Source: Clusia tigrina
Lineage: Eukaryota; Arthropoda; Insecta; Diptera; Clusiidae
Assembly (NCBI GenBank): GCA_920105625.2
Contig: CAKKTE020000278.1
Coordinates: 372,001-436,000 of the forward strand
Reading direction: 5' to 3'
DNA: 64,000 nucleotides
Part shown: positions 52,998 to 54,183 of the stretch, in pieces
Position numbering within the stretch: the first letter of the stretch is position 1
Layout of the letters: each line of letters begins with the position of its first letter
Notes under the pieces: generated by a model
Seen by the model: only the letters and a program-made list of their open reading frames with translations
What the model was told of the DNA's origin: nothing
Databases searched by the model: none
Program-made: the position numbers and the translations under genes

Positions 52998-54183
52998 TTA
53001 TATTTGTAAATTTTGGTCCTCACACGCCCTCTCCACTTTCCGGTGGAAGTAAATGGTAGTCTTCGCCCGTATGCGAACTATACGACATGGTGTGTGGGCC
53101 TTTAGTGCCTGCACCAGACTTGGTGGTAGTTGCGTAGCTTTGGGTCCATCTAGTTCGGCGTTGCTTTCAAAAACTATCTCGGACCATCGGTTTTCTGGGG
53201 TGTTGGCCGTGCATTCGTCTGTTGTCTTCGGTGTAGCTGGTGTCGTCTTCTGCCTCTTCCAGTTCCCATAAGAGGTGTCGTCGGTGCCTGAAGACTTTCG
53301 CCTTGGAGTGGATTCTGATTTTAACCGGGAGTCGGTAGGCTTATTTAGACACAGTTGCTTATTTAGACACAGTTGCTTGAGGATATGGATTATCTCTCGT
53401 CTCTTCTGCCGGATCGTATTATCTGTGTACCATTTGTTTAGATCGGCTGATCTCCACTTGTCGCTGCCTATGGCTTGGGTAAAGAAACTCCCCGCATTTT
53501 GCAAGGTAAACACATCACAGTCCGTCTGGTTTTGTTGTTGTGGCGTCTTTGGGATATATCGGTATGTTGGTACCATCGAATGTGGCGGGTGACATTGCTC
53601 CAATTTTCGCCCTGAATTCCTCCGGCAGGTATTGACGAACTGCTTCTGCTTCACGTGTGTAGGATATCTTTACCATGGAGTTGAAAATTAAAATTGTAGT
53701 GACGTGTTGTCCTGTCGCAGCTGCACCCGAGAAACATATGATGATGAGGTACCAGTGCTGATTTTGGTGGATAGGAATCCTTATGAAGTCTTTCTGGAAA
53801 ATATTGTCGTCTTTCGTCCATCGTCTGACACGTTGATGTTGTTTTTCGGGCGTGTCAGGCACTTTCGTAAGTGACGAAAAGAAGTGTGTGCTAAATACAT
53901 ACAATTTTTCTTGTTGACTGCGGGGAATGAGGTTATTTCGAATCCACTTGAGGTAAAAATCTATGATTATATCATTCAGCAACTGGCCCTCCTGTAGGCG
54001 TGTGACGTCCTTTTTCCGAATGCACAATCCTCCTACGCCGGTTGGGTACACCAAGAGTATTTCCTCTTGTTGGTTTTCGTCTTCATCTCCTGAATTTATC
54101 TCCAGTGTAGGCAGTTCCTTGCTCCATGGTGTCTCAATGTTGACACGTGTTAATTTTGTGTAGGCCATTTTTGCATTGTTCAT
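52998..54183 (-). CDS. Ulp1/SENP-like (C48) cysteine protease ORF in a retrotransposon
   Basis: Two overlapping minus frames (54183-53515 and 53654-52998) cover a Ulp1-type domain. Frame 1 has QLLNDIIIDFYLKWI (residues 67-81, the family's entry motif), VFSTHFFSSL, VRRWTKDDNIFQKDF and IPIHQNQHWYLIIICF with His143 (53755-53757). Then comes ILIFNSM, where families usually have Asp; here Asn168 (codon AAC, 53680-53682). Frame 2 has QNQTDCDVFTLQNAGSFF with the nucleophile Cys (53517-53519); the next residue is Asp instead of the usual Gly. A Ser/Lys-rich tail runs to a stop inside the 3' LTR. One frameshift near 53530-53590 separates the halves. Ulp1 enzymes cleave SUMO from proteins. The ORF sits between integrase and LTR, the env-like position. 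A host gene is unlikely given this placement. Confidence 0.82.

What the first reader, a model, noticed from the sequence alone, without database searches (positions are those of the whole stretch)
52998..54183. A gypsy retrotransposon carries a Ulp1/SENP-type SUMO-protease ORF in the env position
Seen: between the integrase end (54479) and the 3' LTR, on the same strand, lies an ORF with QLLNDIIIDFYLKWI, the His-Trp motif in IHQNQHWYLIIICF and the Cys motif QTDCDVF, the layout of C48 proteases. Its stop lies inside the LTR. Known: Ulp1/SENP enzymes remove SUMO, Ulp1-like domains occur in some DNA transposons, and in Drosophila the SUMO pathway helps piRNA-guided silencing. Inference: a retrotransposon deSUMOylase could blunt silencing or act on Gag. 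I know of no described gypsy lineage with this arrangement, but could not search.
Basis: partly seen in the sequence, partly recalled or inferred. Interest (0 to 1): 0.9.

Follow-up and report, generated by a model that had tools for sequence, protein, structure and literature searches.

The report
Gypsy retrotransposon carrying SENP7-like protease gene
A decayed copy of an insect-type retrotransposon carries, where an envelope gene would sit, a relative of a host enzyme that removes SUMO from proteins, hinting that a jumping gene may once have tampered with the cell's silencing machinery.

Summary
On the minus strand an LTR-bounded Ty3/gypsy element (51505-60383; LTRs 98.2% identical; GCATT at both flanks) has gag, a weak protease match, RT, RNase H and integrase. 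Between integrase and 3' LTR, same strand, lies a Peptidase_C48 gene split over two overlapping frames: ORF A (54183-53515; E=5e-18) and ORF B (52998-53669, with the Cys motif; 17.8 bits, under Pfam's 20.7 cut-off). Both match SENP7 best among solved structures, so the gene sits with the SENP6/7 (Ulp2, fly Velo) branch. This copy cannot make the intact enzyme: besides the frame change, the triad Asp reads Asn and the Gly after Cys reads Asp. ORF B runs through the polypurine tract into the LTR, the gene shares the A-rich strand bias of the element, and I saw no sign of nested insertion, so it looks like a resident gene. No second copy could be examined: the own-genome search did not complete 14 times, and other collections gave none. 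Paper searches (capped listings, open papers only) showed C48 genes in several DNA transposons but none in an LTR retrotransposon. An anti-silencing role is plausible but untested.

The parts
58767..60383 (-). 5' LTR (1617 bp)
   Evidence: LTR alignment: 1489 of 1517 aligned bases identical, 28 substitutions, K2P 0.0187;
60385..60389 (-). target-site duplication GCATT, 5' side (one base from the TG of the LTR, so the LTR edge is uncertain by about one base)
   Evidence: flank sequence
57636..58679 (-). gag ORF; Retrotrans_gag, with a weak N-terminal SAP-like match
   Evidence: PF03732 E=4.6e-7; SAP_new25 E=0.0023, below cut-off (scanned as 57633-58673)
57033..57479 (-). aspartic protease region of pol (weak match)
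   Evidence: gag-asp_proteas E=0.007, below cut-off, scanned as 57030-57293; stop-to-stop stretch
56614..57003 (-). reverse transcriptase piece of pol
   Evidence: RVT_1 E=5e-9 (scanned as 56611-56949)
54482..56128 (-). RNase H and integrase piece of pol
   Evidence: RT_RNaseH 1.1e-31, Integrase_H2C2 2.2e-18, rve 1.1e-16 (scanned as 54479-56020); best relatives 60-65% identical
53515..54183 (-). ORF A: N-terminal and middle part of the SENP7-like catalytic domain (LLNDIIIDFY, RVRRWTK, HWYL)
   Evidence: Peptidase_C48 E=5e-18; human SENP7 3eay E=1.2e-24, 49 of 110 aligned residues identical
52998..53669 (-). ORF B (stop-to-stop): C-terminal part of the catalytic domain with the Cys motif (QQNQTDCDVF), then an extension of about 120 residues without a Pfam match; stop inside the 3' LTR
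   Evidence: Peptidase_C48 E=0.003; human SENP7 E=2.3e-6, 24 of 73 identical; extension 53001-53369, 0 Pfam families up to E=0.1
53755..53757 (-). predicted catalytic His codon (HWYL); role by analogy, recalled
   Evidence: alignment
53680..53682 (-). triad position: Asn (ILIFNS) where SENP7 has Asp (ILILDS)
   Evidence: that part of the alignment scores only 1.1 bits
53517..53519 (-). predicted catalytic Cys codon
   Evidence: alignment to SENP7; coordinates
53027..53041 (-). polypurine tract GGAAAGTGGAGAGGG, inside ORF B, just before the 3' LTR
   Evidence: sequence; function inferred
51505..53022 (-). 3' LTR (1518 bp)
51500..51504 (-). target-site duplication GCATT, 3' side
   Evidence: flank sequence

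Best explanation
This is one decayed copy of an insect-type (probably dipteran) Ty3/gypsy LTR retrotransposon whose ancestors took up an intronless copy of the catalytic domain of a host SENP6/7-type (Ulp2/Velo-type) SUMO protease as a third gene between pol and the 3' LTR. Shown: the LTR element, the position and strand of the gene, its SENP7-like sequence, and that this copy is broken. Inferred: that it was a standing gene of the family; that intact relatives make a separate protein that removes SUMO from host or element proteins; [quoted passage not shown]
For: C48 match. SENP7 is the best solved relative of both pieces: A 90.5 bits against 58.5 for the best SENP2 chain; B 30.7 bits, three sequences listed up to E=10, two SENP7 and one Ulp2. 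Closed element with LTRs 98.2% identical and GCATT on both sides. ORF B contains the polypurine tract and ends in the LTR. Sense-strand AT skew of the gene is 0.25 (A) and 0.30 (B), like gag 0.22, PR-RT 0.25, RH-INT 0.23; of 265 same-size windows outside the element 11 reach the gene's 0.272, all starting at 45001-47801, a stretch with another gypsy-type integrase on the same strand. No exact shared word of 8 or more bases between the edges of the gene and no run of 7 or more A at its 3' end. His, Cys and the Gln six before Cys are kept (positions recalled, the triad and an invariant Gln named in PMC4281951, passages). Literature: SENP7 prefers SUMO chains, and its removal of them from KAP1 is proposed to promote chromatin relaxation after DNA damage (PMC4281951, passages); Dm_ULP2 is Velo in its tree legend, and SENP7 is called the closest homolog to Velo (PMC8324896, passages); Su(var)2-10 is proposed to link Piwi to SetDB1 (PMC7272611, passages).
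Against: One copy only; no intact one seen. Frame change, Asn for Asp and Asp for Gly in this copy, so no normal enzyme from it. No dN/dS, expression or activity data. The SENP7 stretch between the HWYL strand and ILILDS, 65 residues in the chain, is 11 here. Two cited titles in PMC8324896 (reference list) say SENP7 ensures or locks HP1 at pericentric heterochromatin, which points the opposite way from loosening it, and a long host-type N-terminal part is not carried. Insect SUMO is reported to lack the consensus motif that supports chains (PMC7802965, passages). Open-frame length alone is not remarkable for an element of this size. None of the 120 listed pol relatives (of 662) shows a C48 domain in the same protein, which says nothing about a separate ORF.
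Confidence: 0.45

Rival explanations
1. One-off passenger: this copy or a small subfamily picked up a host SENP7-like mRNA by template switching during reverse transcription; the gene gave no benefit and decayed.
For: Single copy, broken, with changes at two conserved active-site positions. [quoted passage not shown] No relative of ORF A among 61 candidates and one weak hit among 315.
Against: The frame goes on for about 120 codons past the catalytic domain, through the polypurine tract and into the LTR; a stretch of that length was open at a fixed place in 8 of 2000 simulations. Strand bias equals that of gag-pol. gag and pol are broken too, so decay is not special to this gene.
Confidence: 0.3
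2. The protease serves the element's own proteins: it removes SUMO from Gag, integrase or their nuclear partners and helps import or integration rather than fighting silencing.
For: Its position next to pol would let it be made with the replication proteins (layout). A role of Ulp1 domains in transposition itself was suggested for DNA transposons (PMC2836005, passages).
Against: No SUMO site or interaction was tested. The passages on SENP7 that I saw concern chromatin (PMC4281951).
Confidence: 0.13
3. A processed host retrogene landed in this copy after integration (nested insertion).
For: No intron interrupts the SENP7-like stretch.
Against: No A run at its 3' end and no exact flanking repeat of 8 bases or more; 11 exact 7-mers, about 8 expected by a rough count, not simulated. 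The ORF shares the polypurine tract and LTR edge.
Confidence: 0.04
4. A catalytically weak or dead SUMO-binding decoy: the domain keeps the SUMO-gripping surface but not the full triad.
For: Asn replaces the triad Asp and Asp replaces the Gly after Cys.
Against: These may be decay in this copy only. Papain-type enzymes use Cys-His-Asn (recalled), so Asn alone need not abolish activity. The SUMO-binding surface was not examined.
Confidence: 0.08

Closest known systems
Ginger1 DNA transposons (PMC2836005, abstract and passages)
   Same: Gypsy-type integrase with a C-terminal Ulp1 (or OTU) protease domain.
   Different: Ginger1 is a DNA transposon with terminal inverted repeats and its Ulp1 is part of the transposase. 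Here there are LTRs, gag and RT, the protease is a separate frame, and it is SENP7-like.
KIU genes of Vandal/MULE transposons, plants (PMC13317346, passages)
   Same: Captured Ulp1 domain in a transposon that can escape epigenetic silencing.
   Different: Plant DNA transposons; the function of the Ulp1 domain itself is stated to be unknown.
CryptonF and CryptonS elements with C48 peptidase (PMC3212892, passages)
   Same: Mobile elements carrying a C48 gene.
   Different: Tyrosine-recombinase DNA elements of oomycetes.
Orchid Ty3/gypsy elements with an active AlkB-type m6A demethylase (PMC9289625, abstract and section 12)
   Same: Ty3/gypsy element with an extra ORF for a host-like enzyme that could counter host surveillance.
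   Different: Plant, different enzyme; activity shown there, not here. C48 is not named among the extra domains discussed in section 12.
Bdelloid rotifer LTR elements with GDSL or DEDDy ORF3 (PMC5408684, passages)
   Same: Enzyme ORF in the env position of LTR elements.
   Different: Other enzymes; several families known.
Human SENP7, fly Velo (Ulp2 branch)
   Same: SENP7 is the closest solved sequence to both pieces; 49 of 110 and 24 of 73 identical.
   Different: Host genes with a catalytic-domain stretch absent here.

Membership tests
Ty3/gypsy LTR retrotransposon | paired direct LTRs flanked by a short target duplication | tested here: met
   1617 and 1518 bp, 98.2% identical, GCATT on both sides
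Ty3/gypsy LTR retrotransposon | gag, then PR-RT-RH-INT with integrase after RT | tested here: met
   Pfam matches in that order; PR weak, below cut-off
Ty3/gypsy LTR retrotransposon | primer binding site and polypurine tract | tested here: inconclusive
   polypurine tract seen at 53041-53027; no tRNA was matched to the sequence after the 5' LTR
insect errantivirus | envelope glycoprotein gene in third position | tested here: not met
   The third gene is a C48 protease; its C-terminal extension has no Pfam match up to E=0.1
Peptidase C48 (Ulp/SENP) | profile match above the curated cut-off | tested here: met
   ORF A 66.2 bits against 20.7; ORF B alone 17.8, below
Peptidase C48 (Ulp/SENP) | Cys-His-Asp triad and oxyanion Gln | tested here: not met
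   His, Cys, Gln kept; Asp reads Asn in this copy; Cys in another frame. Other copies not seen
SENP6/7 (Ulp2) branch | closer to SENP7/Ulp2 than to SENP1/2/3/5/Ulp1 | tested here: met
   ORF A 90.5 bits for SENP7 against 58.5 for SENP2, though Ulp2 itself (38.6) scores below SENP1/2; ORF B lists SENP7 and Ulp2 only. No tree was built; no SENP6 chain was listed
SENP6/7 (Ulp2) branch | conserved insertions in the catalytic domain | tested here: not met
   The 65-residue stretch of SENP7 before ILILDS is 11 here; other insertions were not examined
Ginger1 DNA transposon | terminal inverted repeats, integrase-like transposase, no RT | tested here: not met
   LTRs, gag and RT present
active deSUMOylase | cleaves SUMO conjugates | not testable with these tools
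   no experiment possible; this copy is broken

The most novel reading that the evidence does not exclude
An insect gypsy lineage holds a working SENP7-type SUMO protease as a third gene and uses it to strip SUMO from the piRNA/SetDB1 silencing machinery at its own insertions: a retrotransposon-coded anti-silencing enzyme, and the first C48 protease known in an LTR retrotransposon.
Probability: 0.2. Interest if true: 0.88.

Novelty: new variant of a known kind. Interest (0 to 1): 0.6.

Why it matters
C48 genes recur in transposons of unrelated kinds (Ginger1, MULEs, Cryptons, and by my reading a Helitron-like one), and why is open. A capture by an LTR retrotransposon, from the Ulp2 rather than the Ulp1 branch, would be an independent case in a group whose silencing in flies is reported to involve SUMO, so the anti-silencing idea becomes directly testable in fly cells.

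Tried and rejected
A longer padded query (670, so about 369-1172) gave 1 of 315, P0121: 1163 residues with C48 and UCH domains and a Pif1 match below cut-off; its C48 matches SENP5, SENP2, SENP3 and SENP1 above SENP7, and it also matches PIF1 chains and, weakly, Helraiser. I read it as Helitron-like and not as the source of this gene. Viral contigs: gene and pol, no relative confirmed. Prokaryote contigs: gene and pol, none confirmed. Own genome: the genome search unanswered in 14 of 14 tries. tblastn in the window: no second copy of the gene.

Structure: ORF A alone gave mean pLDDT 34.3; not used, no fold search made. Rfam (51000-61000) and tRNA (whole window) scans: nothing. Nested retrogene: rejected. 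Host gene beside the element: rejected, since the gene lies between the LTRs.

A programmed frameshift joining A and B was considered and not preferred: the gag and pol pieces stand in different frames too, so ordinary decay explains it.

A listed paper on whitefly piRNAs that holds both 'sentrin-specific protease' and 'gypsy' was opened (passages): it concerns a gene annotated SENP1 under a piRNA cluster; the passages make no claim that an LTR element carries it.

Full report
What is there. On the minus strand, between 60383 and 51505, lies an LTR retrotransposon. The LTRs (60383-58767 and 53022-51505) share 1489 of 1517 aligned bases, K2P 0.0187; the 3' copy lacks two repeat-bearing stretches of 33 and 67 bases. 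GCATT stands beside both outer ends, one base off the TG at the 5' end. Inside are gag (PF03732, 4.6e-7), a weak protease match, RT (5e-9), RNase H (1.1e-31) and integrase (zinc-binding 2.2e-18, core 1.1e-16), in Ty3/gypsy order. The gag and pol pieces stand in different frames, so the copy is broken in several places. The RNase H-integrase piece has 662 database relatives, 120 listed; the best are 60-65% identical, and the closest named ones are Bactrocera dorsalis (62%) and Drosophila subpalustris (61%), with ants and wasps further down.

The gene in question. Pol ends near 54375 by eye (the sequence reads AHISELKPY, as AHISDLKPG in P0026). About 190 bases on, ORF A begins at 54183. ORF A matches Peptidase_C48 at 5e-18 over profile 2-145; ORF B at 0.003 over 155-188, below the curated cut-off on its own. 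Against all PDB chains, ORF A is best with SENP7 (1.2e-24, 90.5 bits), then SENP2 (58.5), SENP1 (47.7), Ulp2 (38.6), SENP5 (33.3), SENP3 (30.9) and Ulp1 (24.4). ORF B lists three sequences up to E=10: two of SENP7 (2.3e-6) and Ulp2 (0.024). Identity to SENP7 is 49 of 110 and 24 of 73 residues. Two separate pieces thus name the same relative. SENP6 and SENP7 form the Ulp2 branch, whose fly member is Velo (PMC4281951, passages and tree legend; PMC8324896, passages). No tree was built here and Velo was not compared.

State of the active site. The His (HWYL), the Cys (QQNQTDC) and the Gln six before it are present; their roles are by analogy. At the place of the triad Asp the copy reads ILIFNS against ILILDS in SENP7; this part of the alignment is short and weak by score (1.1 bits), though without gaps there. 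The Gly that follows Cys in SENP7 is Asp. The Cys lies in another frame than the His; both frames are open between 53669 and 53518, and I did not place or mend the change. This copy cannot make the intact enzyme. A SENP7 stretch of 65 residues is 11 here.

Is it a resident gene of the element? For: ORF B goes on for about 120 codons past the catalytic domain, contains the polypurine tract (53041-53027) and stops inside the LTR. A stretch of that length was open at a fixed place in 8 of 2000 simulations; but the longest open stretch in 200 element-length simulations averaged 125 codons, maximum 247, so this is modest support. AT skew on the sense strand is 0.25-0.30, like gag-pol (0.22-0.25), against -0.02 and 0.15 in the flanks. 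Of 265 same-size windows outside the element 11 reach the gene's 0.272, all starting at 45001-47801, where another gypsy-type integrase lies on the same strand. So in this window the bias marks gypsy elements, and the gene has it; the host gene's own bias is unknown. No exact repeats of 8 or more bases flank it and no A run ends it. Against: only one copy could be seen. I searched the window, viral contigs, prokaryote contigs and proteins without finding another; none of the DNA collections is meant to hold insect genomes, and the host's own genome could not be searched.

How it might work. Best reading: intact relatives make a small SENP7-like protease that removes SUMO. [quoted passage not shown] the original paper was not held). 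Mammalian SENP7 is proposed to remove SUMO chains from KAP1 and so relax chromatin after DNA damage, with HP1 as adaptor (PMC4281951, passages). A retrotransposon with such an enzyme could loosen its own silencing. Two things speak against this simple form: titles cited in PMC8324896 say SENP7 keeps HP1 at pericentric heterochromatin (reference list), and insect SUMO is reported to lack the motif that supports chains, though mosquito PIAS can still build them in vitro (PMC7802965, passages). Every step beyond the sequence is inference. A neutral passenger is the main rival.

What is known. C48 genes are described in Ginger1, in plant MULEs, where KIU-carrying Vandals cause hypomethylation of their kin, and in Cryptons. 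P0121 looks Helitron-like and carries C48 and UCH domains, but its C48 is nearer SENP5/2/3/1 than SENP7. LTR elements with other captured enzymes are known: orchid gypsy with an AlkB-type demethylase and rotifer elements with GDSL or DEDDy ORF3. Novelty searches of 5.39 million open papers: searches (17 papers, 17 listed; 22, 20 listed; 2, 1 listed; 2,347, 25 listed; 1,535, 20 listed; 230, 20 listed; its Peptidase_C48 term matched no listed paper), plus on extra ORFs in general (458, 15 listed). No listed title or abstract start names an LTR retrotransposon with a C48 gene. Fifteen papers were opened, for abstracts, sections or passages, none read whole; in six on extra genes of retroelements or on insect ERVs the words ulp and sumo do not occur. 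Repbase and subscription papers were not searched.

Verdict. I file it as a new variant of a known kind: captured C48 genes in transposons are known, but in a retrotransposon, from the Ulp2 branch, seemingly not.

Noticed in passing
window 53001-53025 and the matching start of the 5' LTR: The two LTRs differ at the codon where ORF B stops (alignment), so in the 5' LTR the same frame would run further into the LTR; the end point of the gene may vary among copies.
   Followed up: no
window 54217-54240: CAA followed by GTAAGT, a strong-looking 5' splice donor, lies just upstream of ORF A; splicing of the third gene was not tested.
   Followed up: no
window 57636-58679: The Gag N-terminus has a weak SAP-like match (SAP_new25 E=0.0023, below cut-off), a DNA-binding fold not usual for Gag as far as I recall.
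   Followed up: no
window 51969-52266 and 59297-59627: Both LTRs contain arrays of mostly 33-36 base repeats, six copies in one and seven in the other.
   Followed up: partly
window 53343-53378: An 18-base unit stands twice in tandem in ORF B just past the catalytic domain, giving QLCLNK twice.
   Followed up: no
window 45639-46610 and 222-540: Two other integrase remnants, about 23% and 33-45% identical to this element's pol by tblastn; the first lies in a stretch with the same A-rich strand bias.
   Followed up: partly
P0121 (unnamed ENA contig of 4544 bases): A protein with PIF1-like, C48 and UCH domains: apparently a Helitron-like element carrying both a SUMO-protease-type and a deubiquitinase-type domain.
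   Followed up: partly
window 10605-13698 and 33077-35987: Long non-LTR retrotransposon-like ORFs with endonuclease-like and RT-like sequence, seen by reading only.
   Followed up: no
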